Shown here in pieces: positions 18,474 through 63,933 of a DNA stretch of 64,000 nt. Made by a program: the position numbers and the translations under genes. Origin of the DNA: Humisphaera borealis (lineage in GTDB: Bacteria > Planctomycetota > Phycisphaerae > Tepidisphaerales > Tepidisphaeraceae); NCBI RefSeq assembly GCF_015169395.1, contig NZ_CP063458.1, positions 6,324,001 through 6,388,000 on the forward strand. Reading direction: 5' to 3'. Position 1 is the first letter of the stretch. Each line of letters opens with the position of its first letter. Below the pieces are notes generated by a model. It was given only the letters and a program-made list of their open reading frames with translations, searched no databases and had not been told where the DNA came from.

Positions 18474-19274
18474 TCACCAGCCCTTGCCGGTGTAGAGACG
18501 TTCTTCGGAAAGTTCGTCGCGACCGAGGCGTTCGACGTGGCTGTCGCCGAAGAGCACGTTCGCCCGCTTGTTATGACGCAGGTATTCGAGGGAGCGGTCG
18601 GGGTCGACCCACTGGTACCAGTCGTTGAAGGTGTCGCCGTTGCCGTCGGTCACGCTCTCGTAGCCGTCGTTGGCGAAGATCGTCTTGGACGAGTGCCGCA
18701 TTCTGGCAAGGTTACGGCCTTCCCAGGTGTTGTTTTTGCGGTGGAACAGCGCGATCTCGTCCTTGTCGCCGAAGGTCGAAAGCCTAAACGCGTCGGTGCC
18801 GCGCTTGCCACCGTTGTTGCCGCCGTAGCAGTTCTGGGCGTACGAGGTGTAAATCGATCCCTGGGCGAAGGTAAGTCCGTCGCCGTTTTCGCCGTCGGTG
18901 GCATCAGGGCAGTTGAAGAGCACCTTGGGAAGATTGCCAACAGTCGCGTAAAGAACGCCCCAGTAGGCATTTGTGTGGTTCGGATCGATCATCCGCGACA
19001 TGTTGAGCGGATCCTGCCAGTTCGTCGAGTTCCGCCACTGGCCGATGAAGCCCTTGTTCTGGGTCATGTAGAGCTGCACGGCAACGCCGATCTGCTGCAA
19101 CTGCGAAGCGCATTTGATCGCCCGTCCCTCAGCACGAGCCCGATTGAGCGATGGCAGCAGGATGCCAATGAGAACGGCGATAATCCCGATCACAACCAAT
19201 AACTCCACCAGCGTGAAGCCCCGGGCCTTGGAACGAACGGCGGAATACGGAGGAGCGATCCTTGCTTGGTTCAT
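18474..19274 (-). CDS. Pseudopilin-like protein with prepilin N-terminus
   Basis: A 266-aa protein of the large planctomycete family with a type IV prepilin/pseudopilin leader: after a basic 18-residue leader, [20 protein letters not shown] (cleavage G/F by a prepilin peptidase, then a hydrophobic helix) and [20 protein letters not shown]. The C-terminal half is a beta domain with Cys pairs and ends near [12 protein letters not shown], the (F/L)(A/G)DxHV motif typical of this group. Exported and processed; assembly into a filament is possible but not shown. It stands alone. A 7-5-7 palindrome lies upstream at 19325. Confidence 0.88.
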
Positions 19275-20542: not shown

Positions 20543-21574
20543 TCACATCAACCGTTTCCGAATGCGCTGGGTCAGAAACTCCAACGTGAGTACCGTCGCG
20601 AAGACCACCAGCAGAATCGTGGTCACGTGACCAAAGTTGGACATGTCCCAGCGGCCCTTCAATTCCATGCCGATTCCACCGGCCCCGACGATGCCTAGCA
20701 CAGATGCCGACCGGACGTTCCGCTCCAGGATGTACTGTACGTAGGCTACGTACTGCGGAAGAACCTGCGGTAGCACCGACATCCGAAGCACCTTCAGCCC
20801 GCCGGCCCCGGTGCTGCGGAGTGCCTCCTGGGGTCCGGCATCGGCGTTCTCGATATCGTCGGCGAAGAACTTCCCGAGAAAGCCGAAGCTATGGATGCCC
20901 AGCGCCAGCACACCCGCAATCGGGCCGAACCCGTACAGCAGAACAAAGAACATCGCGATGATGAGTTCCGGCATGCTGCGACTGAAACTGCACATGCCCC
21001 GGGCAGCGGTGTAAACGACAGGATGCGGCGAATAGCCGCGAGCACCGAGCACGCCGAGCGGGGCGGCGATCAGGACGGCGAGCAGGGTGCCCCAAAGGCC
21101 CATCTCGATCGTCTTGAGCATCAGCAGGCAGACGCGTGTCAGGTATCCCAGCGGCTCGATCAGGTACTGCCTTACGCCGGCCTCGACGTACTTTCCGGTG
21201 GCGACGTCGTATTCTCGCACCGGTTCGGAGATCAGATAGCTGTTTGGCGGCAGGTGCGCGGGGTCGAAGCCGTCGATCCGTGAGACTTCCGTCTTTTCCG
21301 CGAGCACCAGCGGCAACGCCGCACTCCAGAACAGTCTCCAGCCGCGCGAAACACCATCCTCCTGGCCGATACCGGCGATATGAACAGCACCTTCGGCGGT
21401 CATGACCGCCGCCCGATCCAATTCCGTCCGCCGGGCCGAGAATGCAAGCAACAGCGCCACCAGCGCGGCGAGCAGGAACCACCGCTTGGAGATTCCCGGG
21501 CGCAGATTCCAATCGCCAGGCTTGGGCCGGAGATCGTCGGGCGGGCTTGTGGTCGGCAGTGAGACAGTGCTCAT
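20543..21574 (-). CDS. phnE: Phosphonate ABC transporter permease PhnE
   Basis: A 343-aa integral membrane permease. One N-terminal TM (RWFLLAALVALLLAFSA, about 31-47) precedes a periplasmic loop, then the core permease with LGTLLAVLIAAPLGVLGARG, FSRSMPELIIAMFFVLLYGF, the EAA-type loop around EALRSTGAGGLKVLRMSVLP and ASVLGIVGAGGIGMELKGRW, all typical of PhnE. Its ATG overlaps the phnC stop (ATGA, 21571-21574), so translation is coupled. It forms the inner-membrane channel for phosphonate import with PhnC and PhnD. Confidence 0.95.
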   Translation of the reverse strand: MSTVSLPTTSPPDDLRPKPGDWNLRPGISKRWFLLAALVALLLAFSARRTELDRAAVMTAEGAVHIAGIGQEDGVSRGWRLFWSAALPLVLAEKTEVSRIDGFDPAHLPPNSYLISEPVREYDVATGKYVEAGVRQYLIEPLGYLTRVCLLMLKTIEMGLWGTLLAVLIAAPLGVLGARGYSPHPVVYTAARGMCSFSRSMPELIIAMFFVLLYGFGPIAGVLALGIHSFGFLGKFFADDIENADAGPQEALRSTGAGGLKVLRMSVLPQVLPQYVAYVQYILERNVRSASVLGIVGAGGIGMELKGRWDMSNFGHVTTILLVVFATVLTLEFLTQRIRKRLM

Positions 21575-22407
21575 GGGATCGCCATCTGCGGCGTAAGGGC
21601 CGACGAGCGGGGATTGTTACCGCCGGTCTCATCGGATGAGGGTGCGGGCGGTGGCGAGGCCAGCAGTTCGCCGCCATAGATCGAGTCGACGCCCAACGCG
21701 GCCAACACTTCGGGGGGACCGTCGAACACCACCTTCCCGTTCTTCATCGCGACGATGCGATCTGCAAACTTGATCGCCAGGTCGACCTGGTGGAGCGAGC
21801 AAAGGACCGTCGTACCGCGAGACCGGGTGCTGTGCCGCAGCAGCTCGAGAATCGAAGACGACGTTTGCGGGTCGAGGCTCGCCACCGGCTCGTCGGCAAG
21901 AAGTACCGGCGGGTCGAGCATCAGCGCCCGCGCGATCGCGACCCGCTGCTGCTGGCCGCCGGACAGTTTCGAAGCCTTTCGATAAAGATGCTCTTCGCCG
22001 AGCCCGACTTCCGCGAGCAGAACGCAGGCCTTGCGGCGGAGGTCGCGAGGGAACAGCCGCAAGAGCGTTCTCGGCAACGAAACCTCCGGCAGTGCGCCGG
22101 CCAGTACGTTGTCCATCACCGTGAGCCGGGCGACGAGGTTGAACTGCTGGTGAACCATGCCCACGCGTCGCCGCACGTCGCGAAGGGTTCGGGGCGAGAC
22201 GGTCGTGTCGCCGACGCGTACTTCACCGACATCGACTCCGGCCTGCAGTTCGGTCAGGCCGTTGACCGCGCGAAGCAGCGTCGATTTGCCGGCCCCGCTG
22301 GATCCGAGGATGACGCAAAACTGACCGGGCGGAACGCTCAGCGACACGTTGTCGATCGCCCTCGTCCCGCCGGGAAATGTCTTGGTGATGTTCCTGAACG
22401 TAACCAT
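21571..22407 (-). CDS. phnC: Phosphonate ABC transporter ATPase PhnC
   Basis: A 278-aa ABC ATPase. Start at ATG 22407 (MVTFRNITKTFPGG); the longer frame adds an unlikely Cys-rich extension. Walker A GSSGAGKST, Q-loop MVHQQFNLV, signature LSGGQQQRVAIARAL, Walker B VLLADEPVASLD and H-loop CSLHQVDLA are all present; the NGLTELQAGVDVGEVRVGDT insertion after Walker A is typical of PhnC. The C-terminal about 30 residues are a Pro/Ser-rich tail. It powers the phnE permease, with phnD 58 nt upstream. Confidence 0.95.
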   Translation of the reverse strand: MVTFRNITKTFPGGTRAIDNVSLSVPPGQFCVILGSSGAGKSTLLRAVNGLTELQAGVDVGEVRVGDTTVSPRTLRDVRRRVGMVHQQFNLVARLTVMDNVLAGALPEVSLPRTLLRLFPRDLRRKACVLLAEVGLGEEHLYRKASKLSGGQQQRVAIARALMLDPPVLLADEPVASLDPQTSSSILELLRHSTRSRGTTVLCSLHQVDLAIKFADRIVAMKNGKVVFDGPPEVLAALGVDSIYGGELLASPPPAPSSDETGGNNPRSSALTPQMAIP

Positions 22408-22465
22408 GGAGGATGAAACAGACGACGGCGGATCGACTCGGCAAGCTGCGACGCACACCTGCCGA

Positions 22466-23446
22466 CTACTGTCCGGCCTTCTTGAGAATCTCGCCCTTGA
22501 GCGCGTCGGTCACGGCGGCGAGTTTTGCCATCGCGGCGTCAAACTCGGATTCGGGATAGTCGGCGTTGTAGCGATCGACCTTCTTGCCGCCGTAACCGCG
22601 GATCATCTCGGGCTTGACACTCGGCTGCTTGTGGATGCCGTTAAAGCCGTCGCGAAGCTTGGTCTTCAGTTCCGGCGGCAGCTTTCGGTGCATGGCAAGC
22701 GGGGGGTAGGGAATCGGCTCGCTCTTGGCCAGCAGGCGCACTTTGGTCGGGTCAATCTGCTTGTCGGTGACGGCCTTCTCGAAGCTGTTGAAGGCGCACC
22801 CGGCGGCGTCGGTCTTGCCGGCCGACAGCGCGGCCAGGGCATTGGCATGACTGCCGGTGATGTAAACCTTTCCGAGGTCCTTCACCGGATCGACACCGGC
22901 GGCGATCAGCATCGCGATCGGGTAGTAGAAGCTGCTGGTCGAATTGACGTCTCCCAGCGCGACGGACTTGCCCTTCAGGTCGCCGAGGACTTTTGCCGTC
23001 GAATCGGCCGGCACGAAGATCCCGGAGAAGTAGACCGATTCCCCTTTCTCAACCGCGACGGCAAGCAGTTCCGCCGCACCGGCTTGTCGGGCCCGGTGGT
23101 AGGTAACCGGGCCGAAGAACGCGACGTCAACCCGTTCGTTGGTCATGCCCTGTACGACCGCGTCGTAGGACGCTGCGACCTTGAGATCGAACTTCAGTCC
23201 GGTCGAGGCAGAGACCGCGTTAAACACGGGCTGGAAGTCGGCGATCGTGCCTTGCTCGGTGCCGCCATCGGCCGGCACCAGCACCACACGAAGAGGCCGC
23301 TCGGCGGAGCCGTCATTCAGTCCGGCCGCGTCGGCACGCTGGGTTGTCGGGGCATCTTTCCGCCCCGACTGAGAGTCACAACCGACCGCCAGCGCAAGAG
23401 CGGAAGCCACAACGAGAGACCAGAAGCGAAGCGCGGAAACCGCCAT
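22466..23446 (-). CDS. phnD: Phosphonate-binding lipoprotein PhnD
   Basis: A 326-aa periplasmic binding protein. The ATG at 23446 gives a lipoprotein leader (MAVSALRFWSLVVASALALA then VGC). Family landmarks: LRVVLVPADGGTEQGTIADF, VFNAVSASTGLKFDLKVAAS, ASYDAVVQGMTNERVDVAFF, GPVTYHRA, then VALGDVNSTSSFYYPIAML, and AGKTDAAGCAFNSFEKAV. This matches PhnD (FxxxLxxxTGxxVxxxxxxxYxAxxxAxxxxxxDxAxxG...). Binds phosphonate (or phosphate/phosphite) outside the inner membrane and feeds PhnE-PhnC. First gene of its operon. Confidence 0.93.
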   Translation of the reverse strand: MAVSALRFWSLVVASALALAVGCDSQSGRKDAPTTQRADAAGLNDGSAERPLRVVLVPADGGTEQGTIADFQPVFNAVSASTGLKFDLKVAASYDAVVQGMTNERVDVAFFGPVTYHRARQAGAAELLAVAVEKGESVYFSGIFVPADSTAKVLGDLKGKSVALGDVNSTSSFYYPIAMLIAAGVDPVKDLGKVYITGSHANALAALSAGKTDAAGCAFNSFEKAVTDKQIDPTKVRLLAKSEPIPYPPLAMHRKLPPELKTKLRDGFNGIHKQPSVKPEMIRGYGGKKVDRYNADYPESEFDAAMAKLAAVTDALKGEILKKAGQ

Positions 23447-23569
23447 GATAATTGCCTCAAGTGGAGCACAGGGAGTAGACGGACCGCCGCCGGGCCAACG
23501 CCCGAGTTGCCCGGTCAACAATCCGTCGGCGAACTGTGCGGGAAGAAGACTCTCCCGATGCAAGGGCTG

Positions 23570-23598
23570 CATTAAGCTGGCAATCGGACCTCATTAAG
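23570..23598. promoter_or_regulatory. CATTAAG repeats at 11-bp phasing (Pho-box-like)
   Basis: CATTAAG at 23570-23576 and 23592-23598 are exactly 22 nt apart, with a weaker CAATCGG at the midpoint (23581-23587). Three 7-mers phased by 11 bp is the layout of PhoB-type boxes. They lie in the divergent phnD/phnZ spacer. The word itself is not the E. coli consensus, so this is a candidate only. Confidence 0.35.
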
Positions 23599-41173: not shown

Positions 41174-42952
41174 CTACTGAGCGACCCCCAGCAGCGCCGC
41201 CGTCGGCAGGCAGACGGCGCGGATCGCTTGAAGGTCCTCGGCGTCGAGGGCGTCGCGCTTGCCGGCGCGGACGGTGGAGGGTTCGATCGGTTCTCTCAGC
41301 GTGCCAGGGTTGAACCCTTCGAAGATCCGGCCCATCACCGACATCGGGTCGGTCACCGCCTGGGTGTACGGCACGACGATCAGGCCGGCGCTGCCGGCGT
41401 TGGCGCCGCCGGACATCGCGACGGCGTCGAGGATCTGGTCGGCGAGGTAGCGCCACCACGCCGCCCGACGCCAGGCGGGATTTTTGAGTTGGCCGACGTC
41501 AACGAGGGCGCGGCGCTGGCGGTCGGAAAGGAACGGGTCGCGCAAGCCGCCGTGACTCATCTTCTTCACGTCCGCGGAAAGGAGGTGCGAGAACGTGGTC
41601 TTCCAACTGGCGATGACATCGAACGGGTTGCGGATGCAGACGATGAGCTTGGCCGCGGGCATGGCGCGGCGCATCGCGGGCAGGCGGCTCAGGAAGCCGA
41701 GCGGGCTTTTGACGCCGAGGACGAAGTCGCGCGAGGTCACCGCCGGCAGATACTGGGTCTGCTCGTTGGCTTCCATGGTTTCGTCGGTGACCTTGCCGTC
41801 CTTGAGCTTGTTGAGGATGGGCCGGCGTTCGAGGATTTCGCGGCGCTGGTCGCGGTAGAACGCGCCGACGCCGTAGGGAATGAGTTCCTTGCGCAATGGC
41901 CGGCTGATGCCGTCGGGCTCGTTGAGGACGACGCAGTTTTCGTAGCGGTGGAGGAGGTTGCAGAGGTAACTGGTGCCGCTCCGCGGGAAGCCGGTGATGA
42001 TGAGTTCGGGGGTCGGCGTCCGGTGGGGCGAACTGGGTTGTAGTGCAGCCGTCCCGGCCGCGGCTGGCGCGACGACCGCACCGCCAACACCACTGGTCAG
42101 CAGCGGGGCGTATTCCGGGTCGGCCTCGATGCGCTGCTTCAGGGCCGGCCGTTCGTTGCAGAGGTCGCGGGCGAGGTCGACCAGCATCGGCTCCCGCCGA
42201 AGGACCGGCGGCGAATGGTAATGGGCGAACAGCGGCGGCCGGGCGTAGTCGATGGCCTTGATGTGGACGGGGTAGTTGTAGCGCTCGTCGAGGCAGGCAT
42301 AGGGAAGCTTCAGTTTCTTGATCGCGACGGGCAGCGCGATCTGATCGAGATGCGGCCGCTTCAGACGGACGCCCCACTTGGCATCGATGCGGCGGCAGGA
42401 TTCGAGCCAGGCGTCGCCGAAACCGCTGGTGGGGTCGGCGGCGATCAGGCCGGCATTGAAGTAGGGGTGTACGAGCTGGCCGTAGACGGTCGATGCGACG
42501 CGGTCGTCGGGGAGCTTGAGTTTCATCGCCGCATACGCCCGCCGCCACTGGCGGTACTCGGTGAGGTTGGCGAGGTCGACGGCCTTGGCGGCAACGGGAA
42601 AGTCGAACGCCGGATCGCCGTCGAAGGGCCCGGTCAGGAGGATGTCGGAATCGATGAAGACGAGCCGGTCCATCGTCGTCTTGAGGAGCATGCAGGAGAT
42701 CTTGTTGCCGATGGGGTAGTCGTCGGCGACGAGGTTGGTGATCGGCTCGATGCGGCAGCCGAGGTCGTGCAGCAGGGCGGTGGTGTCGGCGGCGAGGGTG
42801 CCCCAGCGGGCGGCGGGGGACGGGACGGCGGCGATCAGTTCATGCTCGCAGCGCAGGAAACGCTTGAGCGACGCCGCCAGCAGCAAAGCCTTGTTCTCCA
42901 GCACGCCGGCCTGGCAGACGAAGACGAACGCGTAGGAGCGGACCTTGCTCAT
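41174..42952 (-). CDS. Glycosyltransferase-sulfotransferase fusion protein
   Basis: About 592 aa from ATG 42952 (GGAGG 11 nt upstream; ATG 42970 is an alternative). N-terminal half (about 1-275): a GT8-like nucleotide-sugar transferase pattern with FVFVCQAGVLENKALLLAAS, the DxD in RLVFIDSDILLTGPF, YFNAGLIAADP, RPHLDQIALPVAIKK and a final FAHYHSPP. C-terminal half (about 310-592): a PAPS-dependent sulfotransferase with the 5'-phosphosulfate loop ITGFPRSGTSYLCNLLHRY and the 3'-phosphate motif IVCIRNPFDVIASW. The two are joined by an Ala/Pro linker (VVAPAAAGTAALQPSSP). The protein could add a sugar and sulfate it, or modify one glycan at two sites. Cytoplasmic. Confidence 0.82.
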   Translation of the reverse strand: MSKVRSYAFVFVCQAGVLENKALLLAASLKRFLRCEHELIAAVPSPAARWGTLAADTTALLHDLGCRIEPITNLVADDYPIGNKISCMLLKTTMDRLVFIDSDILLTGPFDGDPAFDFPVAAKAVDLANLTEYRQWRRAYAAMKLKLPDDRVASTVYGQLVHPYFNAGLIAADPTSGFGDAWLESCRRIDAKWGVRLKRPHLDQIALPVAIKKLKLPYACLDERYNYPVHIKAIDYARPPLFAHYHSPPVLRREPMLVDLARDLCNERPALKQRIEADPEYAPLLTSGVGGAVVAPAAAGTAALQPSSPHRTPTPELIITGFPRSGTSYLCNLLHRYENCVVLNEPDGISRPLRKELIPYGVGAFYRDQRREILERRPILNKLKDGKVTDETMEANEQTQYLPAVTSRDFVLGVKSPLGFLSRLPAMRRAMPAAKLIVCIRNPFDVIASWKTTFSHLLSADVKKMSHGGLRDPFLSDRQRRALVDVGQLKNPAWRRAAWWRYLADQILDAVAMSGGANAGSAGLIVVPYTQAVTDPMSVMGRIFEGFNPGTLREPIEPSTVRAGKRDALDAEDLQAIRAVCLPTAALLGVAQ

Positions 42953-43159
42953 GCGGTGGCAAACCTCCATGTTTCACGGCGGGGGCGATCCATTCGCCTG
43001 CGCCGCCGACAAAGGTAAGCAAAGGTGGCGTGTGAGCAACAGGAGAACCTTGCCATCGGTCGTCAAGACTTTCCGCGGGGGCGTGACATTGCACGAAGAA
43101 GTCGTCAGGTTGTCATCCCAAGGCTTTCCGAAGGACGACGCGGGAGGTGCCAGGCGAAA

Positions 43160-44944
43160 TCATTCTTTTTTCCGCCGTAGCAGACGAGACAGAAGCGATC
43201 GCCGTCGCTTCTTTTTGTGGTCTGGCAGTCGGCCGCGATGGGGGGCGACGATCGATGCGTTGAGCTCGTGCAGCAGTTCCGACGCCTGGCTGTACTGTTC
43301 GCGGGTGAAATCGATACCGAGTTTGTTAAGCAACTGGATCGCCGCTGGCGTCTTGCCCGCGAGATGTTTCCGGAAGATGGCCTGCTCGCGCGACGCCAGC
43401 ATTTTCAGGTAGCGCAGCGCCAGTGTTCGTACCGGCATCGCACCGGCGTAGTGCCATTCGGTGTCGATCTGTTTCAAGCCGACGCCGTTGATGATCAGGT
43501 TGGGCGGCGTGCAGTCGAAGAAGTCGGGCTTGAGGAGGGACTGGTACTTATCGGTTGGGTCAATCGCGACCACGCCGACTTTGAGAAGGTGATCGATCCA
43601 GGACCGCAGGTGCGCGATCGCACCGTCGAAGTCGCCACGCTGGAGGAGGTCGACAACGAGATGTTCGAGTTGCGGACCGGTGCGGTAGGCCTCCGTTCCG
43701 ACGACATTCGTGAGCTTGGTGCCGGCAGGCGGTTGGACGTCGATCAGCCGGGACTTGCGGACGAGGATCTGTCCGCCGTCGCCCAGGACCATCGCCGTGC
43801 GGGTATTGAACCAAGGCTGTCGATCGGTGACGTAGCCGGCGGCGAGCAGTTCCGGGGGCGAGAGTCGCGGGGTTTCCTCGGCGGCGATGACGAGAAAGGA
43901 GTTGGCCAGGTCGGCGAGCAGGCCGTTGCGGTGGAGCACGGATCGCACTTTGCGTTCGTCAGCGGGCAGGGCGAGACGACGGCCTTCGTGGGTGGTTTCG
44001 ATGAGCCGAAGGATGGCGGCTGGGTCAAAGTCGGGTGTGTGGAGGGCACGATCGGTCAGCACCCAGCTCGGCAGCTTGTAGTCCGGGAACGGATAGTGGA
44101 ACTCCATGGCGGGGAAGCCGGACGCGGCAAGGTACCGGGACAACTCGGCCTTACCGACAGTCTTGACGCCCGCAGGTTTGTAGAGGTCCTGGACGCCGTC
44201 GAAGGGCCTGCCGGTGTGGTCCTCCGGGCTGCCACAGAAGTACTTCAGGCCGAGCTGGTTCTCGATCGCCAGCAGAAGCACACCGCCGGGCTTGAGAAAG
44301 GATTTGGCAAGGCGGAGGCAGTCGAGGAACGGGTCGGGCGTCTTGAAGAAGACGGGAGAGTATTCGAGCACGCCGATGAGCGTGACGATGTCGAATTTCC
44401 GGCCGGTGTCGATCGCCTGGAAGTCGCTGCAGAAGACGCGGACGTTGGGCAGGTCGGCGGTTCGGGCGGCGGCACAGGCGGCGCGGATCGGGCCGCCTTC
44501 GATCGCCCAGACGTCGCCGGCGGCCTCACCGAGCTGCCGGGTGATCGCGCCGCAGCCGGCACCCAATTCCAGCACCGAATGCTCCCGGCCGATCGTCAGG
44601 TGGCGAAGCAGGTTGTGCCGGGCGGGGGAGAAGTGATAGAGCGTCGGCCAGGAGGCGATATGCCGGAGGAGTTCCTGCGAAAACTGGCTGCGGTCCGTAG
44701 TCGCGCCGAGCAGGTCGAGGGTTTTCCGTTCGACCTTCTGACCTTCGGAATAGCTGAACGCCTCATGGCCGGGACGCATCCAGACACCGGAAGCGGGATC
44801 GCGACGAAATTCATCGACGGGTGTCTGGGTAAGCAATGTCCGACTCCATTCGAAATCCTTACGAAACGGCAATACGACCTGAACAGTATGGCCTGCGTTG
44901 ATCCGCTCTGCAAAGTCATGGCGGTCGCGTATCCATGCCGCCAC
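43160..44944 (-). CDS. SAM-dependent methyltransferase, long form
   Basis: A 594-aa class I methyltransferase starting at GTG 44944. Motif I VLELGAGCGAITRQLGEAAG (about 139-158) with the acidic residue in VWAIEGGPIR, then the CSDFQAIDTGRKFDIVTLIG segment (motifs II/III) and LKPGGVLLLAIENQLGLKYF. The C-terminal about 300 residues are a separate domain with FDCTPPNLIINGVGLKQIDT and EWHYAGAMP (a D-x-PxN...IDxEW pattern known, as I recall, from large methyltransferases of glycan clusters), then a basic tail KKKRRRSLLSRLLRRKK. Probably modifies a surface glycan or glycoprotein; lies in a cluster with sugar-modifying genes. Confidence 0.85.
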   Translation of the reverse strand: MAAWIRDRHDFAERINAGHTVQVVLPFRKDFEWSRTLLTQTPVDEFRRDPASGVWMRPGHEAFSYSEGQKVERKTLDLLGATTDRSQFSQELLRHIASWPTLYHFSPARHNLLRHLTIGREHSVLELGAGCGAITRQLGEAAGDVWAIEGGPIRAACAAARTADLPNVRVFCSDFQAIDTGRKFDIVTLIGVLEYSPVFFKTPDPFLDCLRLAKSFLKPGGVLLLAIENQLGLKYFCGSPEDHTGRPFDGVQDLYKPAGVKTVGKAELSRYLAASGFPAMEFHYPFPDYKLPSWVLTDRALHTPDFDPAAILRLIETTHEGRRLALPADERKVRSVLHRNGLLADLANSFLVIAAEETPRLSPPELLAAGYVTDRQPWFNTRTAMVLGDGGQILVRKSRLIDVQPPAGTKLTNVVGTEAYRTGPQLEHLVVDLLQRGDFDGAIAHLRSWIDHLLKVGVVAIDPTDKYQSLLKPDFFDCTPPNLIINGVGLKQIDTEWHYAGAMPVRTLALRYLKMLASREQAIFRKHLAGKTPAAIQLLNKLGIDFTREQYSQASELLHELNASIVAPHRGRLPDHKKKRRRSLLSRLLRRKKE

Positions 44945-44999
44945 CGGACCACATCCGCCTACGCCAATCCCTCGAAAGTTCTAGGTGTTGCAGCCCTTT

Positions 45000-45995
45000 A
45001 TGGTTATAATTCGGGACGCGACCCACATCCCTGCCCGAAGGTGCCTAATTCGCAGGCCTCGACCCAGCTCGGCGTTCACACTTGTCGAATTGCTCGTCGT
45101 TACGGGCATCATCGCGGTACTGATCTCCATTGTGCTTTCTGTTTCCAGCGGCATCCGAAAGCAGGCGCGTGTCGTCCAGTGCTGTGCGAATCTGCGAAGC
45201 ATCGGGCAGGCGACGCTGGCCAATGCGGCCGAGCGGGGCGGATACCTTCCACTGGCCGGACGAATCACCGTGCAGGACACGTCGTCGGTCTATGTCCTCC
45301 CCAGCGCCCTCGGCGACGACAGCGTCCGGCACTACAGCTATGCCAAAATTCCGAGCCTCAACATCCTAACCCTCGTCCCGTTCATCGCCGCGCTCGCCCC
45401 ACATCTGGGTGTTGCCGACCTCCCGCGCAACGACTGGAACGCGCTGGACCAGGCGTTAAATGCCAAGGACGGTGCCTGGCGGCACTTCACCTGCCCGGAC
45501 ACGAATTCCTACGACAAAGCGACCGTCGGCACCGCCCCCGGCGACAATACCGTCGAGGGTCAGGCGACCATGATGCTCGTAGCCACCGACAGGCAAACCT
45601 TCATCGCCTGGGCGACCAATTCCGATTACGTCATCAACGAAGGCGTCTTCGGGCATCACTACAATCCGGCGTTCGCTCGCAACCGACTGTCCGGGAAGCT
45701 GGCCCGTATCACCCGCCCGCCGGAGACCGTCCTTTTCACCGACGGCGTTCCACGCACGACGATCGCCGACCCCTTGATGCCCTTCGGTTGGATGACCTGG
45801 ACCCCAAGCCTCAACGGCGTCGGTACCGCCACCCTGACCGATGCCCTGAACAACACCCCACGGGCCAGTTCCTCGGAGAACTTCGACCTGCTCCGCCACA
45901 ACCGGCGGATGAACGTCGTCTTCGCCGACGGGCACGTCGAGACCCTCCAGATCACGCCCGAATCGCTCGCCCACGTCCACCTGATTTCGCCCTGA
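45000..45995 (+). CDS. Pseudopilin-like protein with prepilin N-terminus
   Basis: A 331-aa protein with a basic leader and [20 protein letters not shown] (prepilin peptidase site before F), then VLSVSSGIRKQARVVQCCAN and LRSIGQATLANAA, as in other planctomycete pseudopilins. The C-terminal domain contains conserved Asp/His strands and ends in NVVFADGHVETL, the family's FADGHV motif. The start is uncertain: ATG 45000 lies right at a TATAAT box (45005-45010), so the real start or promoter may differ; GTG 44985 is another choice. Divergent from the methyltransferase gene. Confidence 0.82.
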   Translation: MVIIRDATHIPARRCLIRRPRPSSAFTLVELLVVTGIIAVLISIVLSVSSGIRKQARVVQCCANLRSIGQATLANAAERGGYLPLAGRITVQDTSSVYVLPSALGDDSVRHYSYAKIPSLNILTLVPFIAALAPHLGVADLPRNDWNALDQALNAKDGAWRHFTCPDTNSYDKATVGTAPGDNTVEGQATMMLVATDRQTFIAWATNSDYVINEGVFGHHYNPAFARNRLSGKLARITRPPETVLFTDGVPRTTIADPLMPFGWMTWTPSLNGVGTATLTDALNNTPRASSSENFDLLRHNRRMNVVFADGHVETLQITPESLAHVHLISP

Positions 45996-46246
45996 CAGCA
46001 GGGCTGCTACCGCATCAAATCAATTCGAGCGTCCCCAAAAGGCAGACGTTCGGCCAAAAAATAAGAGATATACCTATTGCCATTCACGCAGAACCCCGAT
46101 ATTCTCTCGTGGGTTCACTTAGAAACCCGTGGCGTAATAGGGTAACTCTTGGTGTCCGATGTGTACATCTCGTATCGAATAGCAATTTAGTGCGGCCGTC
46201 AATGTCGCGCCATCTTTGGTGCTTGCTTGTCTACTCGGGAGCGAAA

Positions 46247-47839
46247 ATGCGCCAGCGGGTCTCGCTTTGCATGATCGTGCGCAACGAGGAGCACAACCTG
46301 CCGCGAAGCCTTGCGGGGTTGGCCCAACTCTTCGATGACATCGTCATTGTCGACACCGGTTCGACTGATGGCACTCGCGCCGTGGCCGAAGCGATTGGTG
46401 CCCGCGTATACGACTTCACCTGGTGCGACGACTTCTCCGCCGCCCGGAACTTCGGTCGCCGCCAGGCGACCGGCGACTGGATCTTCTGGCTCGATGCCGA
46501 TGACCGGTTCGACGCCGAGAACCTGACCCGCCTGCGCCGTCTCCTCGAGCAGCTTCCGGTCGCCGATGAACTGTCCCACGACTTGATCTACGTCATGTCG
46601 TGCCGGTCTGCCACCTGTAACCCGGGCGTGTCGTTCGACATTGCCCACACCCGGCTTTTTCGCAACCGGTCCGACATCGCGTGGCGCGGCCGCATTCACG
46701 AGCGTCTCGTTCACGGCGGCTCCGGCGCCGGACTGGCCGACAACGAACTGGTCTACACCGATGTCGTCATCCATCACGAAGGGTATCGCGACGCCGAGCA
46801 GTGGGCCGCCAAGCAGCTTCGCGACCAGCGGGTCCTGGAGCGCGAATACCTCGTGCACCCCGACGATCCGATGACAGCGTTCTACCTCGGTCGGGTTTTC
46901 GCGGCCCAGCGACTGGCGGACAAGGCCATCCCGTTTCTGCGACGCAGCATCCAGAACGATCCTCAAAGTCTCTACAGTTCCACGCCCAAGGCCGCCAGCA
47001 TCCTGATTAAGTGCCTGATCGAAAGCAGTCGATTCGACGAGGCCGTCGCGGCGGCCGATTCGATGTGTCAGCGTTTTGCCCACAACTTCGAGCTTTTGTA
47101 CGAGTGCGGGGCGGTGTATCTGCTCGCGGGCCGGGCCGTCGATGCCGAGAATTGCGCCCGGGCGCTTCTCGCCCAGTCGCCGTCCGAGCCGACATCCCGC
47201 TCCTCGGCCGACCAGTGCCGGGCCGGGCTCGCCGTGGGCATGGACACCCGCGCCGCCCGCATGCTGCTCGCCGAAGCCCTGTGTGCGCAGGGCCGCCCGC
47301 GAGAGGCCGCCGGCCAGCTTCGTACACTTCTGGTGCAAGACCCGTCGAACGTCGTCGCCTGGGCGATGCGCGGTGAAGCGAGCCTTTGCTGTAACGACCT
47401 TCACGACGCCGAACTGTCGCTCAAGTCGCTCTCGGCGTTGCCGAACGCCACCTTCCAAACCGCCATCCTTCGGGCACTGTTCTGCTCGCGCAGCCGGCAG
47501 TTCACCGAAGCATTGCGTTGGGCCCGCAAGGCGATCGCGGCACGACCCGAAGTCCCTTCCGGATGGATCACCCTGGGCAACGCGCTCTACGACGAAGGCG
47601 TCGACTGGCGCGGATGTGCCGCTGCGCTCGAACAGGCACTGCGGCTCAACCCGCGACTCTCGCAGGTGCGCCAGCAACTGCAGCGCGTTCAGGCTTACAT
47701 CACGACGTCGGCGCAGCACCAGACCGCTTCGCAACGCACTTCCACGGCAGCGGGGCACGACGCCGACACGACCCCGCTCGCCGCTCCGTCCGGCCCTCAC
47801 GCCGACCACACCGAGCGACCCTGGGGAGGCCTGGCATGA
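46247..47839 (+). CDS. Family 2 glycosyltransferase with TPR repeats
   Basis: A 530-aa protein from ATG 46247 (GGGAG 6 nt upstream; the open frame extends far upstream without meaning). Residues about 1-230 are a GT2 (GT-A) domain: SLCMIVRNEEHNLPRSLAGL, VDTGSTDGTRAVAEAIGA, the DxD-type WIFWLDADDRF, and WRGRIHERLVHGG. Residues about 230-520 are helical tetratricopeptide-type repeats (FYLGRVFAAQRLADKAIPFL, ASILIKCLIESSRFDEAVAA, AARMLLAEALCAQGRPREAA, ILRALFCSRSRQFTEALRWA). This GT2-TPR layout is common in exported-protein and capsule modification. Its stop overlaps the PIG-L start (ATGA, 47836-47839). Confidence 0.88.
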   Translation: MRQRVSLCMIVRNEEHNLPRSLAGLAQLFDDIVIVDTGSTDGTRAVAEAIGARVYDFTWCDDFSAARNFGRRQATGDWIFWLDADDRFDAENLTRLRRLLEQLPVADELSHDLIYVMSCRSATCNPGVSFDIAHTRLFRNRSDIAWRGRIHERLVHGGSGAGLADNELVYTDVVIHHEGYRDAEQWAAKQLRDQRVLEREYLVHPDDPMTAFYLGRVFAAQRLADKAIPFLRRSIQNDPQSLYSSTPKAASILIKCLIESSRFDEAVAAADSMCQRFAHNFELLYECGAVYLLAGRAVDAENCARALLAQSPSEPTSRSSADQCRAGLAVGMDTRAARMLLAEALCAQGRPREAAGQLRTLLVQDPSNVVAWAMRGEASLCCNDLHDAELSLKSLSALPNATFQTAILRALFCSRSRQFTEALRWARKAIAARPEVPSGWITLGNALYDEGVDWRGCAAALEQALRLNPRLSQVRQQLQRVQAYITTSAQHQTASQRTSTAAGHDADTTPLAAPSGPHADHTERPWGGLA

Positions 47840-48600
47840 AGTCTCGCGGAACGTCATCCGACCGAGGCGGCATGTCCAACGGCGACGCCTCGACCCAGCT
47901 CGCACTGGTCCTGTCGCCACACCCCGACGATGAATCGCTCGGCTGCGGAGGGACGATCAAGCTCATCACCGACGGCGGCGGGGCGGTCGACGTCCTGTTC
48001 ATGACCCGCGGCGAGAACGGGTTCGCACCCGGCCGCATCCCGACCGCCGCCGATCGCGTCGACCTCGCCGCCCGCCGCGAATCCGAAGCCCGCGCCGCCT
48101 GCGAGCGTCTGGGCGTCCGCAGGGTCGCGTTCCTCAACGGCGTCGATGGCTCTCTCGGCGCCACACCGTCGCTCAGCAGTTCGATCCTCGCCGCCCTCGT
48201 CGAAGGCAATTACCGCTCGGTCTTCTGCCCCTGGCCTTACGACCGCCACGGCGATCACCAGGTGACATACCGAATGCTCCACCAGGCGCTGGCCGGCCTG
48301 AAACGCGAGATCGACGTCTGGCTCTATGAGATCTGGACTCCGATGGAGCCCAATTACTATGTCGCGATCGACGGCGTGCTCGAAGCAAAGATGGACGCGT
48401 TCGCCGTTCACGAAAGCCAGGCCGCCGTCCTTCCGTACACCGAGGCGTTCCGCGGGCTTGCCAGATACCGCGGCCTGAGCTGCCCGCCTGCCCGCGCCGC
48501 CGAGGCCTTCTTCTATTGCTCCAGCACGCAGCTCCTGAACCACGAAGGCATCCCCTGGCCCAGGCCGCCGTTCGCCGCGCCGGCCGGCGTCCGCCGCTGA
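47836..48600 (+). CDS. PIG-L family N-deacetylase
   Basis: A 254-aa LmbE/PIG-L protein translationally coupled to the GT2 gene (ATGA overlap); ATG 47872 would shorten it by 12 residues. The zinc motif LSPHPDDESLGCGGTIKLI (about 28-46, AHPDDE type) and the third ligand region PWPYDRHGDHQVTYRML (HxDH) are intact. Also FMTRGENGF and RRESEARAACERLGV. Removes an acetyl group from an N-acetyl-sugar or related substrate. With the upstream glycosyltransferase it probably makes and then de-N-acetylates the same sugar. Confidence 0.93.
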   Translation: MKSRGTSSDRGGMSNGDASTQLALVLSPHPDDESLGCGGTIKLITDGGGAVDVLFMTRGENGFAPGRIPTAADRVDLAARRESEARAACERLGVRRVAFLNGVDGSLGATPSLSSSILAALVEGNYRSVFCPWPYDRHGDHQVTYRMLHQALAGLKREIDVWLYEIWTPMEPNYYVAIDGVLEAKMDAFAVHESQAAVLPYTEAFRGLARYRGLSCPPARAAEAFFYCSSTQLLNHEGIPWPRPPFAAPAGVRR

Positions 48601-48660
48601 GATTCGGCGCGATGCCCCGCGACCACCCGTCCCGCGGCGCGTAACTCAACCGGAAGCCGA

Positions 48661-49299
48661 ATGACTTCCTCCCTGTCGAAGGAAAACCATCTGCTCGAAC
48701 GCTTCGGCGTCACCGTCTGCCGCAACGTCGATCAACCCGGCGTCGGTATTGATGTCGGCTATCTCGTCGATTTCTCGCAGATGCCCGTCTGCACGCCCGA
48801 CCAGCAACGCATCGAAGCCGTCCTCCAATCCCGCGATCTGACGAACCGCGACCTGCTGCATGTCGGCATCGGCAATTCGCACCTGGCGATGCGACTGTCG
48901 CCGCGCTGCCGGCTGATCGACGGCATCACCGTCGCCGAGGCCGAGCGCCAGCGTGGCCGCGCGACCGGGCTGGCCAACTATCGCGCGCTCAAGGCCAACA
49001 AGTACGCGGTCAGCCTGGCGGCGATCCTCAACCGGCACTACGACCACATCATCGACAACAACTTGGCGAGCTTCGCCTGCTGTGGATTTCACCTGATGCT
49101 GATGATGAGCAGCTATCGCCTGATGCTGCGCCACGGAGGTAGCATCCTCACCGACCGCCAGGGGATGGAATGGACCGTCAGTGACCCCCGATGGAAGCTG
49201 ACCGAGCCCGACCTCGGCGCACTGGCGAACGCGCTCGGGCTGAAGCTGTCGAAGACCACCGAATGGGTGTACGAACTCACCAGGCCGGTCGAGAGCTGA
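48661..49299 (+). CDS. Methyltransferase-like protein of glycan cluster
   Basis: A 212-aa soluble protein, ATG 48661 with GGAAG upstream. The middle reads DLLHVGIGNSHLAMRLSPRC (like motif I of class I methyltransferases: LHVGIGxS) followed by LIDGITVAEAERQRGRATGL (acidic loop equivalent) and YDHIIDNNLASFACCGFHLM, then MLRHGGSILTDRQGMEWTV. It therefore looks like a Rossmann-fold methyltransferase with weak motifs; the family is not one I can name. It follows the PIG-L gene by 60 nt and may be last in the operon. Confidence 0.65.
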   Translation: MTSSLSKENHLLERFGVTVCRNVDQPGVGIDVGYLVDFSQMPVCTPDQQRIEAVLQSRDLTNRDLLHVGIGNSHLAMRLSPRCRLIDGITVAEAERQRGRATGLANYRALKANKYAVSLAAILNRHYDHIIDNNLASFACCGFHLMLMMSSYRLMLRHGGSILTDRQGMEWTVSDPRWKLTEPDLGALANALGLKLSKTTEWVYELTRPVES

Positions 49300-49330: not shown

Positions 49331-51145
49331 CTACTTCAACTTCTCCAGGGGAATGACCGCCAGTTCCGCGCTGTTGTGGTTCCCCCGGCGGCCGCCGCCG
49401 TTGGAGTAGCCGACGTACAGCTTGCCCTCGTGCTCGACGGCGCAGGGATAGGAGAGCGAAGCGCCGTCGGCCACGTCGCCGGGGCCCTGGGGGAAGATCG
49501 ACGGGCGGATGATAAACACCCGGCTGAAGACCGACTCGCCCGGCTTGCTGACGGCAATGGTGAGCGGCGTGCGGCGGCCGCCGCTGTCGGCGGTCGTCGT
49601 GCAGACCAGGTAGCGCTGGCCGGTACTCAGCATGCCGGCGGCGGGCTTGGAGGTGGCCATCGGCAGGTTACTCGGAGCCGACGCGATCCACTTTCGGCCG
49701 TAGTCTTTGCTCACGGCGATCAGCGCCTGCGCCTTGCCGCCGAAGCGGGCGATGTTCGTCACATTCGGGCCGTCAACGACAATCGCAGATTCACCCCACA
49801 TCGTCAGCCCGTCGACCGCCGGGATGACGACCAAGTCCCATTTCGTCAGGTCGTCGCCATGACTGATCGCGATGGCGGCGGGGTTCTTGGTTGTGTCGGA
49901 GAACGCACCTGCCTTGATGCCGGGCATGATCCAGTTTCCGTCGGCCATCTTCACCGGCTGGTTCAGCGCCCAGAACCCGCCGTCGACCACAACACCCAGC
50001 GGCTTCCAGGTATTCGTGGTTTCATCGAGCACGAAGGCGCGGGTGTGAATCTTCTGCATGCGGCCGTAGAACGCGCCGTGAAACGCCCAGAGCCTGCCGC
50101 CGTGCGACAGGAAAACGCCGTGACTGATGGACAGGTCCGGCTCGGCCTCACCCGTGCCGATGGTGAAGGGATCGCCCCAGGTTTTGCCGCCATCTTCGCT
50201 GACGCGGCCGCGGGCTTCTTCGCCGTGGGTGTTCTCTTCGCCTTTGTTGTGCCCGAACGACGCGTAGAGCTTGCCCCTGTGCCAGCCGAGGCCCACGCCA
50301 TGCAGCCAGACGTAACCGTCCTTGTCGGGCTCGTTGGCTTTGATGACACGATACTCCACGCCGCTGAGCACTGGGATCTCGGCGGCCTTCGGAAGTTTCA
50401 CGTTTGCGTCCCAGAGCGGCGTGTCGGCGACGATCGCCTTGGGTATCTCGTGGACGGCAGCGATCGGCTTGTACAGCGCGGCGACTTCTTCGGCGCTCAG
50501 CACGCGCGGCACGAACTGCGCTTCATCGACCGCGCCGCTGAACAACTGCACGCGTCGGCCGTTGTCGTTGATGCCGCCGAGCGTGATCGGGGCCTGCGTC
50601 GCCGGCATCGGGGCTTTCAGCTTCGCTTCGCCGACGGGTTGTCCGTTGACGTAGAACGCCGCCCGGCTGGCGTTGATGGTCAGTGTCGCGAGATGCCAGT
50701 GGCCGGCTTTGACGGCGTCCCTGGTCGCGATGGTCGCCCAGCCCCCATGCTGTACGTACGCCTTAAGCTTGCCATCGGGTTCGACGGCGATCGACCACTG
50801 GCGCTCGTTGAGCGAGTAGCGATTCTTACCGGCGACGACCTGCTGTCCGCTCTCGGGCGCGTAGGGGTTGAACCAGACGGAGAACGTGAAGCCATCGGAG
50901 GCGTTCAGCGCGGCGGTGTCCTTCAGTTCGATGACTGAGGTGCCGTCAAGCACGAGCGACTTACCGAGCGCACCGGCGGCCGCCCTGGCAGTGCCAAAAA
51001 CTTTGATCGTCGGATCGGTCGCATCGAGCGACCAGTTCCGAGCGGTCGCCGAGGGAGCGGTGTCCGGCGTGACGGGTTTAATGTCAACGGCGACCGCTGC
51101 CGAGCCAAGAGCGATAACAGAAAGGATAAAAGCGGTGTGTTTCAC
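49331..51145 (-). CDS. Secreted LamG-sialidase-like protein
   Basis: About 604 aa from a GTG at 51145, which gives a signal peptide (VKHTAFILSVIALGSAAVA); the open frame to 51202 has no leader. Residues about 45-210 are a LamG/concanavalin-like domain (LVLDGTSVIELKDTAALNAS, GFTFSVWFNP, HWHLATLTINASRAAFYVNG, LFSGAVDEAQFVPRVLSAEE). Residues about 240-600 are a sialidase-type propeller with SEDGGKTWGDPF and SKDYGRKWIASAP Asp boxes and DGYVWLHGVGLGWHRGKLYA. A carbohydrate-binding module tethered to a glycosidase, probably acting on polysaccharide outside the cell. Third of three such proteins in the window. Confidence 0.85.
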   Translation of the reverse strand: MKHTAFILSVIALGSAAVAVDIKPVTPDTAPSATARNWSLDATDPTIKVFGTARAAAGALGKSLVLDGTSVIELKDTAALNASDGFTFSVWFNPYAPESGQQVVAGKNRYSLNERQWSIAVEPDGKLKAYVQHGGWATIATRDAVKAGHWHLATLTINASRAAFYVNGQPVGEAKLKAPMPATQAPITLGGINDNGRRVQLFSGAVDEAQFVPRVLSAEEVAALYKPIAAVHEIPKAIVADTPLWDANVKLPKAAEIPVLSGVEYRVIKANEPDKDGYVWLHGVGLGWHRGKLYASFGHNKGEENTHGEEARGRVSEDGGKTWGDPFTIGTGEAEPDLSISHGVFLSHGGRLWAFHGAFYGRMQKIHTRAFVLDETTNTWKPLGVVVDGGFWALNQPVKMADGNWIMPGIKAGAFSDTTKNPAAIAISHGDDLTKWDLVVIPAVDGLTMWGESAIVVDGPNVTNIARFGGKAQALIAVSKDYGRKWIASAPSNLPMATSKPAAGMLSTGQRYLVCTTTADSGGRRTPLTIAVSKPGESVFSRVFIIRPSIFPQGPGDVADGASLSYPCAVEHEGKLYVGYSNGGGRRGNHNSAELAVIPLEKLK

Positions 51146-51426
51146 AGGGCCTGCTTTCGGCTTGGCATGCTGCAATCGCAGTGGGCATTTGTCCACGCAC
51201 ACGAGTCAGTGAATTCGGTTACCGCCAGATCGCCACCACCGTTTACTGCTGGCAAATGCAAGCCCAGCCAACTTGGGCTGCAGCGATCGATCAGTACACT
51301 TCCCTGCAGGCGACGGCGAACCAGCCCCGTCGCATCTCCTGACTTCTGGCCGGCCAAGCACGAATACATCCGTTCTGGTGGGGAAGTGACCGCGCTGCGC
51401 GTCGGGCGGCGAGCGACGAGAACCTG

Positions 51427-61463: not shown

Positions 61464-63245
61464 TCAGCAAGCGCGTCGCCTGCGGCGAAGTCCAAGCCCT
61501 GCAGCGGCGATCAGCAGTACCGCGGCGGAACCAGGTTCCGGGACCGGGACGATCTCGAACAGGCCGCCGCCGGCATCCACTGTGGCCGCGCCGTAGGTAC
61601 CGGGGTCGAAGCCAAGGGGGTTCACGAACTGAACGGCATTCACCGCAGCCACCGCCGGTGCGCCGACGACCAGAAATCGATCCGCGCCACCGCCGGTGGC
61701 AAGGCCGTCCCAGTTGGTCACGCTAAGCGTCCCGGCGGTGAACGTCGCCCCGCCGAACGTCAGCACGTTGCTGCCCGTGGCTACGCCGAACTTCAGGGTC
61801 GAGGTTCCCGAACTGATCGAGAGCGTTCCCAGTGTTTCAGAAAAGCCGTTGCTGTCGAGCGTTCCGCCGTCGAGCACCAGTGAACTGCTATTCGGGATGA
61901 CGTCGGCGGCACCCAGTTGAAGGATGCCGGAGATAAGGTTCGTCGGTCCGGAGTAGGTGTTTGCGCCACTCAGCACCGCCTTCTGAACGCTGCGCGTGCC
62001 CGTGGTGACATCCCGTACGATCAGGCCGGTCACGCTGGACCCGATGACCGACGAGATCGTCACCGTTCCCGTAGCGGCAGCATTGGTGCCTGTACCGGCG
62101 TTCTCAAGTCGCAGCGCACCTGTGATGTTGATGTCGCTCGTGTTAACCGTGACGCTCCCGCCGTTGCTGCTGATGATGCTCTGAATTGTCAGGTTGTTTG
62201 TGCCCGTAATCCCGCCGGTGAGGACGGGATTGGCCGATGCGCCGAGATTGTTGATGGTGAGTACGCCAGTCGTGCCGGAGGCAACGATGATCGGCCGACT
62301 GAGCGTAAGGGTGGAGAGGCGCAGGACTGCAGTCGAACTGCCGGAAGTCGCGCCCAGGGTGACGCTGCCGGTCGATCCGAACGCGCTGGCGTTCCGCGCC
62401 AAAACGTTGCCGGCGCGGATGAAGGTGTCGCCGGTGTAGGTGTTGATCGAGGTCGCGGTGAAGTCGAGCGACCCTGCACCCAGCTTGGTAATTCCCACGC
62501 CCGCATCGCCGCCGACGATGCCGGCAATGACGAGGGTGCTGGCATTGTTGGTCGTAATCGAGCGGCTGGCAGCACCGAGTGAGACGGCGTTGTTGAAAGT
62601 GATACTGCCGGTATTGGTGGCGTCGCCGAAAGCCACATCGCCACCGATCGTGATTCCGCCGGCGAACTTTCCCGAGAGGTCGCGTCCGTTCGTGCTGGTG
62701 GAGCGGACCGTGCCGCCATTGAGGGTCAGCGCGCCGCCGCTGCCCAGCGCGTTGACGCCGCCGACCGCAACCGTGCCGGCGTTCAGCGTGAATCCGCCGG
62801 GGTACAGATTGCCGTTGGACGAAATCCACGTTCCGGCGCCGTTCTTGATGAATCCTGTGCCTGCGGCAGTCGAAATCGACTGGGCGGCGAAGTCGAGCGT
62901 CGAACCCGCGCCCACGTCCAGTGTCCTGACCAGTCCGCCGGTGCTGTAGGTTCCTGCGGCAGTCAGGGTGACCGTCGCACCGGCGTCCACCGTGATATCG
63001 CCAACGGGAGTGTTGGTGACATTCGTAATCGACGAATTGGCGGTGAAGCGGGCGGCGGAGTTGTTGGTCCAACCGGCATCAAACGGACCGGCCGCAGTCG
63101 CGCCCCAATTCACCGCCGTCCAGGTGGCGTTGGTGCCATTCGTGTTCCAGAACAGTTGGGCTCGTGCCTCAACCGCGCCGCAACCCATCATCGCAGCGAC
63201 AAGCAACAATCGACCACGTCGGCAGCCTAGCCACTTTGAATACAT
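61464..63245 (-). CDS. PEP-CTERM autotransporter-type beta-strand repeat protein
   Basis: About 593 aa from ATG 63245 (GAGGT 4 nt upstream). Signal peptide CRRGRLLLVAAMMGCGAVEARA. The chain is dominated by autotransporter-associated beta-strand repeats: LFWNTNGTNATWTAVNWG, GTGFIKNGAGTWISSNGN, LTLNGGTVRSTSTNGRDLSG, AGSLDFTATSINTYTGDTFI, VLSGANTYSGPTNLISGILQ, LVLDGGTLDSNGFSETLGTL. It ends in a canonical PEP-CTERM: VPEPGSAAVLLIAAAGLGLR followed by RRRRAC. Exported by Sec, then sorted by an exosortase (none in this window) and probably released to the surface or matrix. Confidence 0.93.
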   Translation of the reverse strand: MYSKWLGCRRGRLLLVAAMMGCGAVEARAQLFWNTNGTNATWTAVNWGATAAGPFDAGWTNNSAARFTANSSITNVTNTPVGDITVDAGATVTLTAAGTYSTGGLVRTLDVGAGSTLDFAAQSISTAAGTGFIKNGAGTWISSNGNLYPGGFTLNAGTVAVGGVNALGSGGALTLNGGTVRSTSTNGRDLSGKFAGGITIGGDVAFGDATNTGSITFNNAVSLGAASRSITTNNASTLVIAGIVGGDAGVGITKLGAGSLDFTATSINTYTGDTFIRAGNVLARNASAFGSTGSVTLGATSGSSTAVLRLSTLTLSRPIIVASGTTGVLTINNLGASANPVLTGGITGTNNLTIQSIISSNGGSVTVNTSDINITGALRLENAGTGTNAAATGTVTISSVIGSSVTGLIVRDVTTGTRSVQKAVLSGANTYSGPTNLISGILQLGAADVIPNSSSLVLDGGTLDSNGFSETLGTLSISSGTSTLKFGVATGSNVLTFGGATFTAGTLSVTNWDGLATGGGADRFLVVGAPAVAAVNAVQFVNPLGFDPGTYGAATVDAGGGLFEIVPVPEPGSAAVLLIAAAGLGLRRRRRAC

Positions 63246-63933
63246 CGACCTCGCAACTTTTGACACATCGGAACCTGTACAACCGGACATCAGGCACTTC
63301 TCCCACAGAAGAAAAGACGTTACTCCAAATCGATATGGCACCGAGGCGCCAGAGCGAAAGCTTCACTGCCTGATCGCGCAGCCATCGCACCACCTTAGGA
63401 GTGTTGTTGCCGCGCTAATAGGTTTCGTGATGCGGGCAGATGCAGGCTCAACGAGTGCAGATGCCGCTTTCAAAGCTCGCCTGTCAATCAGCAAGTGGCG
63501 TGCCTACCTGGACGCGATCGCCGCACACACCCCCGTAGTTCTCGGGCGCCGCGGCCGGCAGCTTTCCTGCATCCCCAAGGATGCCGCCCAGAAGTCGCCG
63601 GGCTGATCACGTACCTAGATGCTCTTAGCATTAATCCGCGCTGCCGGCGCCGCCAACCAACGAGTCTCGGCGAGCCTCCCGGCATACGACTGTCGCCCAG
63701 AGGACGCCCGGCCCTCCGCACTTTGCGCCAATTAACACCTACGTGCCGAAGGCTTCCGTCCCCGCGCCCTCCCCTAGGACCATCCCTATCAACACATTCT
63801 TGTGAAATCGCATGAGCCTGGTCGGCGTCGGTAGGGCAGATGCGGATGTTGTTGCGGTCGATGATGACCGCCCGCCGCTATCGGACGTTTCGCCCGGCGT
63901 GTCCTGGCCGTGCGGATTTGTGAGGGATACGGC
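63246..63933. other. Spacer before last gene, nothing firm
   Basis: No gene supported. One plus-strand frame ends at 63606 with a plausible-looking but unrecognised C-terminus; it has no start or ribosome site. Confidence 0.35.

What the first reader, a model, noticed from the sequence alone, without database searches (positions are those of the whole stretch)
41174..49299. Candidate surface-glycan modification cassette
Within 8 kb: a GT-sulfotransferase fusion, a long methyltransferase, a GT2-TPR transferase coupled (ATGA) to a PIG-L deacetylase, and a methyltransferase-like protein, with a pseudopilin gene in the middle. Together they could build, de-N-acetylate, methylate and sulfate a sugar, possibly on the pseudopilin itself. 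No polymerase, flippase or export genes are near, which favours modification of a protein rather than a capsule.
Basis: inference. Interest (0 to 1): 0.6.

Follow-up and report, generated by a model that had tools for sequence, protein, structure and literature searches.

The report
Sugar-capping enzyme among unrelated glycan genes
This stretch of a bacterial (probably planctomycete) genome holds several real sugar-handling enzymes, but they are not a conserved set; the most informative one belongs to a kind that caps surface sugar chains with a methyl-phosphate group, and the pilin gene between them is probably a bystander.

Summary
The genes are really there, but the "cassette" is not conserved as a unit. 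Three strand blocks are seen: a GT–sulfotransferase fusion plus a long methyltransferase (−); a pseudopilin (+); and GT2-TPR / PIG-L (ATGA overlap) / a divergent methyltransferase-like protein (+). No sampled genome repeats the combination. The pseudopilin is one of 67 in the genome (about 7% chance of one in any 8 kb).

The main result: the "long methyltransferase" is a methyltransferase–kinase of the type shown in Klebsiella pneumoniae O7 to cap O-polysaccharides with methyl-phosphate. All seven residues named for O7 line up at a constant offset, and five kinase-part residues are invariant in 61 sequences. In 51 of 80 relatives the Wzt exporter gene is within 10 kb, usually touching; in 7 the gene lies by flagellin/FliD genes. 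So "no export genes nearby, therefore a protein" does not follow. This genome has Wzm/Wzt and flagellin genes elsewhere; the acceptor stays open. The window copy is a short form, without a long coiled coil or adjacent exporter, and is essentially alone in its phylum sample.

The parts
41174..42970 (-). Fusion of a GT-like domain (about residues 1-300, DSD, YFNAG, LDQ motifs) and a PAPS-type sulfotransferase domain (321-551, motifs GFPRSGTS and IRNPFDVIAS)
   Evidence: Pfam Sulfotransfer_3 E 3e-12; full-length 55% relative in one other genome, G163
43160..44944 (-). Methyltransferase-kinase of the ORF6-O7-N type; start probably TTG at 44836 rather than GTG at 44944
   Evidence: Pfam MT domains; family alignment A3 of 61; residue match to O7; AF2 model pLDDT 90; codons
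43973..44836 (-). Methyltransferase half of that protein (about residues 37-324)
   Evidence: Structural matches such as CgnL 7pd7, Z 15.2
43220..43972 (-). Kinase-like half (residues 325-575) with invariant D477, N482, D494, E496, W497
   Evidence: Invariant in 61 of 61; model of this part alone pLDDT 91.4; best structural matches all kinase fold, APH(3')-Ia Z 8.2
44985..45995 (+). Pseudopilin (N-terminal methylation motif, H-X9-DG C-terminus); probably a bystander
   Evidence: Pfam N_methyl, TIGR04294; one of 67 in the genome
46247..47839 (+). GT2 glycosyltransferase with C-terminal TPR repeats
   Evidence: Pfam Glycos_transf_2 E 2.6e-22 plus TPR; nearest named model SunS peptide glycosyltransferase, far below its cut-off
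47836..48600 (+). PIG-L type de-N-acetylase, translationally coupled to the GT2 gene (ATGA)
   Evidence: Pfam PIG-L E 9e-25; diacetylchitobiose deacetylase relatives; overlap read
48661..49299 (+). Divergent methyltransferase-like protein, function unassigned
   Evidence: No family; phmmer E 1.6e-6 collinear with a class I methyltransferase

Best explanation
The 8 kb is a composite of glycan-tailoring genes in at least three strand blocks, not one conserved cassette. Its best-defined member is a methyltransferase-kinase that most likely phosphorylates the non-reducing terminal sugar of a surface glycan with ATP and then methylates that phosphate with S-adenosylmethionine, capping the chain. 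The acceptor glycan is made and exported by genes elsewhere in the genome. The GT-sulfotransferase and the GT2-TPR/PIG-L pair would add and trim (sulfate, de-N-acetylate) residues of the same or other surface glycans. Shown here: family membership of the methyltransferase-kinase, its intact catalytic residues, and the lack of co-conservation. Inferred from the Klebsiella O7 enzyme: the two reactions. Pure inference: the acceptor, and any cooperation among the genes. The pseudopilin is taken as a bystander.
For: 423 candidate stretches encode relatives; 80 were fetched. A strong Wzt lies within 10 kb in 51 of 80; in 47 it is within 4 kb upstream on the same strand and in 34 it abuts the gene. 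O7 residues Y28, Y66, G91, G93, E112, Y158 and D441 (PMC11231755) correspond to window Y65, Y103, G128, G130, E149, Y195 and D477, offset 37 (36 for the last); the Pseudomonas plasmid relative has the first six at exactly the O7 numbers. D477, N482, D494, E496 and W497 are invariant in 61. Models: MT half like CgnL 7pd7, C-terminal half like aminoglycoside phosphotransferases, as reported for O7. Non-conservation: fusion full-length in one other genome, MT-kinase nearly absent from the phylum sample, trio not repeated. Own-genome exporters.
Against: No exporter or polymerase lies beside the window gene. In the window's own clade 11 of the 15 other rows have neither Wzt nor flagellin nearby. 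The model shows no long coiled coil after the kinase part, unlike O7 and WbdD. The kinase-fold match is weak (best Z 8.2; no Foldseek match under 0.001). The O7 sequence itself was not at hand; the comparison rests on published residue numbers. No activity has been measured.
Confidence: 0.68

Rival explanations
1. The methyltransferase-kinase caps a protein-linked glycan, most plausibly on flagellin encoded elsewhere in the genome, as its relatives beside flagellin genes may do.
For: 7 of 80 relatives lie by flagellin or FliD genes, four of them 99-394 bases from a flagellin gene; two such relatives (L071, L098) are in the window's own 16-row clade; this genome has four flagellin-like genes, one about 180 kb away.
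Against: Flagellin contexts are a minority and scattered on the tree; no relative of the window genes was found beside this genome's flagellins.
Confidence: 0.2
2. The genes form one cassette that builds, de-N-acetylates, methylates and sulfates a glycan on the pseudopilin.
For: Physical proximity within 8 kb; GT2 and PIG-L are translationally coupled.
Against: No co-conservation; 67 pseudopilins in the genome, so chance proximity is about 7%; the pilin has no special paralogue; the genes lie on both strands.
Confidence: 0.04
3. The GT2-TPR/PIG-L/MT-like trio is an independent small pathway making a modified amino-sugar compound or glycolipid, unrelated to the methyltransferase-kinase.
For: The trio is on the other strand; PIG-L resembles BshB1/BshB2 and chitobiose deacetylases, and PIG-L genes are common in the phylum (238 of 294 genomes).
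Against: BshB scores are far below the family cut-offs; no small-molecule pathway genes were identified beside it.
Confidence: 0.2

Closest known systems
Klebsiella pneumoniae O7 ORF6-O7-N methyltransferase-kinase terminator (PMC11231755)
   Same: MT domain then an APH-like kinase domain; all seven residues named in the paper align at a constant offset of 36-37; CgnL is among the best structural matches of the MT half in both
   Different: O7 has a CBM-like domain, a coiled coil and two C-terminal GT2 modules and belongs to an ABC-transporter-dependent O-antigen cluster; the window protein ends soon after the kinase part and has no exporter beside it
WbdD of E. coli O9a (PMC3482155)
   Same: Same logic: kinase plus methyltransferase capping a glycan with methyl-phosphate
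   Different: The O7 paper reports that WbdD's kinase differs in sequence and structure from the O7 type; WbdD was not listed among matches of the window protein, which is no test of exclusion
SunS-like GT2 glycosyltransferases
   Same: GT2 domain with similarity running into the following region; best named model hit
   Different: 68.9 bits against a cut-off of 350; no glycocin precursor was identified
PIG-L deacetylases (diacetylchitobiose deacetylase, BshB, MshB)
   Same: HPDDE and HGDH motifs, PIG-L family
   Different: Substrate unknown; scores below all equivalog cut-offs

Membership tests
Methyltransferase-kinase enzyme family (ORF6-O7-N catalytic pair) | Collinear sequence similarity over both domains to members in O-polysaccharide clusters | tested here: met
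   35-38% over 77-84% of the protein to plasmid relatives beside Wzm/Wzt; 61-row alignment
Methyltransferase-kinase enzyme family (ORF6-O7-N catalytic pair) | S-adenosylmethionine-binding residues Y28, Y66, G91, G93, E112, Y158 of O7 | tested here: met
   Y65, Y103, G128, G130, E149, Y195, each kept in 58-61 of 61 rows
Methyltransferase-kinase enzyme family (ORF6-O7-N catalytic pair) | Kinase catalytic Asp (O7 D441) | tested here: met
   D477 invariant in 61, with N482 and D494 at kinase-like spacing
Methyltransferase-kinase enzyme family (ORF6-O7-N catalytic pair) | Second domain of kinase (APH-like) fold | tested here: inconclusive
   The 50 listed chains are of kinase fold, best Z 8.2, but no Foldseek match is under 0.001
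Methyltransferase-kinase enzyme family (ORF6-O7-N catalytic pair) | Phosphorylation then methylation of a terminal sugar | not testable with these tools
   Needs an enzyme assay
Export-coupled chain terminator (role of WbdD and O7 ORF6) | Gene in a cluster with Wzm/Wzt | tested here: not met
   None in the neighbourhood; Wzt_C matches only at 2.35, 4.57 and 5.16 Mb of the genome, more than 1 Mb away
Export-coupled chain terminator (role of WbdD and O7 ORF6) | Extended coiled coil after the kinase domain | tested here: not met
   Model shows only short helices 548-565, 576-580 and 584-593, the last two at low confidence
Pseudopilin glycosylation cassette | Co-conservation of the modifying genes with each other and with a pilin | tested here: not met

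The most novel reading that the evidence does not exclude
Methyltransferase-kinase capping enzymes known from O-antigens have been recruited, in several lineages, to cap protein-linked glycans such as those of flagellin, and the short form in this window is one of these; methyl-phosphate-capped glycoproteins would then exist in bacteria.
Probability: 0.2. Interest if true: 0.6.

Novelty: new member of a known kind. Interest (0 to 1): 0.4.

Why it matters
It turns a loose list of 'methyltransferase plus glycosyltransferases' into one concrete, testable claim: a methyl-phosphate cap on a surface glycan. It also widens the O7-type capping family, for which the paper listed alphaproteobacteria, gammaproteobacteria and cyanobacteria, to many phyla and to flagellin loci. 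And it corrects the inference that missing export genes nearby imply a protein target.

Tried and rejected
Pseudopilin as target: unsupported. A pilin near the closest PIG-L paralogue at 0.516 Mb looked suggestive, but it is only about the tenth closest of the 39 paralogues compared. G313 as a second genome of the phylum with the enzyme: a 3.6 kb contig with Wzm, Wzt and an MT 76% identical to Nitrosospira, in a genome listed with 7% contamination, so probably contamination. Fold search with the whole 594-residue model found only methyltransferases, so the kinase half was modelled alone. WbdD and AmiN were not listed among structural matches, which does not exclude them. The orphan against the MT alignment by hhalign gave nothing. 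Pfam finds no family in the GT half of the fusion; 'GT' there rests on motifs read by eye. Promoter and terminator scans were at chance level. Literature searches for flagellin with methylphosphate, and for flagellin glycosylation with WbdD, found no papers in the held library.

Full report
Observation. The open frames and family scans give a GT-sulfotransferase fusion at 41174-42970 (-), a long methyltransferase at 43160-44944 (-), a pseudopilin at 44985-45995 (+), a GT2-TPR protein at 46247-47839 (+), a PIG-L deacetylase at 47836-48600 (+) overlapping it by ATGA, and a 212-residue protein at 48661-49299 (+). Family alignment suggests that the methyltransferase starts at a TTG near 44836, leaving about 150 bases to the divergent pilin. 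Catalytic motifs are intact by reading: HPDDE and HGDH in PIG-L, DTGSTDG and DADD in the GT2, GFPRSGTS in the sulfotransferase.

Is it a cassette? The combination was looked for in relatives and not found. The orphan has essentially no relatives in 294 genomes of the phylum. The fusion is full-length in one other genome (G163, 55%), and none of the other window genes was found near it. The long methyltransferase has no strong relative in the phylum sample apart from a probable contaminant. PIG-L is common (238 of 294), but none of the PIG-L loci fetched from other genomes carries the trio. Among 80 loci of methyltransferase relatives none holds the fusion, PIG-L or the orphan. The genes lie in three strand blocks.

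The pseudopilin. The genome has 67 matches to the N-terminal methylation motif, one per 107 kb, so the chance of one falling in an 8.1 kb stretch is about 7%. A second lies in this same window at 18474-19274. Only 1 of 80 methyltransferase-relative loci holds a pilin-like start. I take it as a bystander.

The long methyltransferase. Two plasmid relatives cover most of the protein and both sit directly after ABC exporter genes. A scan of one genome per species for 84,980 species gave 423 relatives, of which 80 were fetched. In 51 a strong Wzt match is within 10 kb; in 47 it is within 4 kb upstream on the same strand, and in 34 it abuts the methyltransferase gene. In 7, flagellin or FliD genes lie nearby instead, four of them with flagellin 99-394 bases away. 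Flavobacterial relatives follow dTDP-rhamnose-type genes and precede a probable flippase (gene names there by reading, not by family search).

The identity came from a paper on Klebsiella O-antigens (PMC11231755). There ORF6-O7-N is a methyltransferase-kinase whose kinase domain has no recognisable sequence similarity to known kinases. It puts phosphate and then methyl on the terminal rhamnose, and D441A kills the kinase. The O7 residues Y28, Y66, G91, G93, E112, Y158 and D441 match window Y65, Y103, G128, G130, E149, Y195 and D477 at offset 37 (36 for D441). The Pseudomonas plasmid relative carries the first six at exactly the O7 numbers. D477, N482, D494, E496 and W497 are invariant in 61 sequences. 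The whole-protein model has pLDDT 90; its first half resembles CgnL (Z 15.2), the best match reported for O7. The second half modelled alone (pLDDT 91.4) matches kinase-fold chains in the list shown, led by aminoglycoside phosphotransferases (Z 8.2), although no Foldseek match is under 0.001. The paper reports AmiN at Z 7.4 for the O7 domain.

Differences. The window protein ends soon after the kinase part and shows no long coiled coil, and no exporter is adjacent. By tree it falls in a supported 16-row clade (SH-aLRT 97) in which most members have neither exporter nor flagellin nearby. I therefore place it in the enzyme family, but not among export-coupled chain terminators. This genome does hold Wzt_C matches at 2.35 (below the family cut-off), 4.57 and 5.16 Mb, the first two with a Wzm-like permease near, and flagellin-like genes at 2.50 and 6.19 Mb. 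The acceptor could be either kind of glycan.

How it likely works. Shown here: family membership, intact catalytic residues, lack of co-conservation. Inferred from O7: phosphorylation and then methylation of the terminal sugar. Pure inference: the acceptor, and that the fusion and the GT2-TPR/PIG-L pair tailor the same glycan.

The orphan. It is weakly collinear with a class I methyltransferase (phmmer E 1.6e-6 against a small set) but departs from the usual glycine motif. I leave its function open.

Verdict. Most of it is ordinary glycan enzymology. The capping enzyme, and the spread of its family into flagellin loci, are the part worth following.

Noticed in passing
L071, L098, L099, L135 (also L067, L087, L095): Methyltransferase-kinase relatives, in very long open frames (probably fused to GT modules as in O7), sit beside flagellin or FliD genes; the six that are in the alignment keep the kinase residues. 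This suggests capping of flagellin glycans; no paper on it was found in the held library.
   Followed up: partly
window 18474-19274: A second pseudopilin (DUF1559 type) next to a phosphonate-type ABC transporter operon at 20543-23572.
   Followed up: no
window 61464-63341: Protein with passenger-associated-transport repeats and a weak PEP-CTERM motif, a possible sorting substrate.
   Followed up: no
window 49331-51202: LamG plus BNR (sialidase-like) protein converging on the glycan genes from the right.
   Followed up: no
G313:C209 (L256): 3.6 kb contig with Wzm, Wzt and a methyltransferase-kinase 76% identical to Nitrosospira in a genome listed with 7% contamination; probably contamination.
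   Followed up: yes
e.g. G078:C94, G188:C13, G123:C3: In many genomes of the phylum PIG-L domains come in pairs about 2 kb apart, suggesting a recurrent two-deacetylase arrangement.
   Followed up: no
G000:C1:5150500-5170400 (L143): An ABC ATPase with a Wzt_C domain directly followed by a methyltransferase gene, with no Wzm-like permease found beside it.
   Followed up: no
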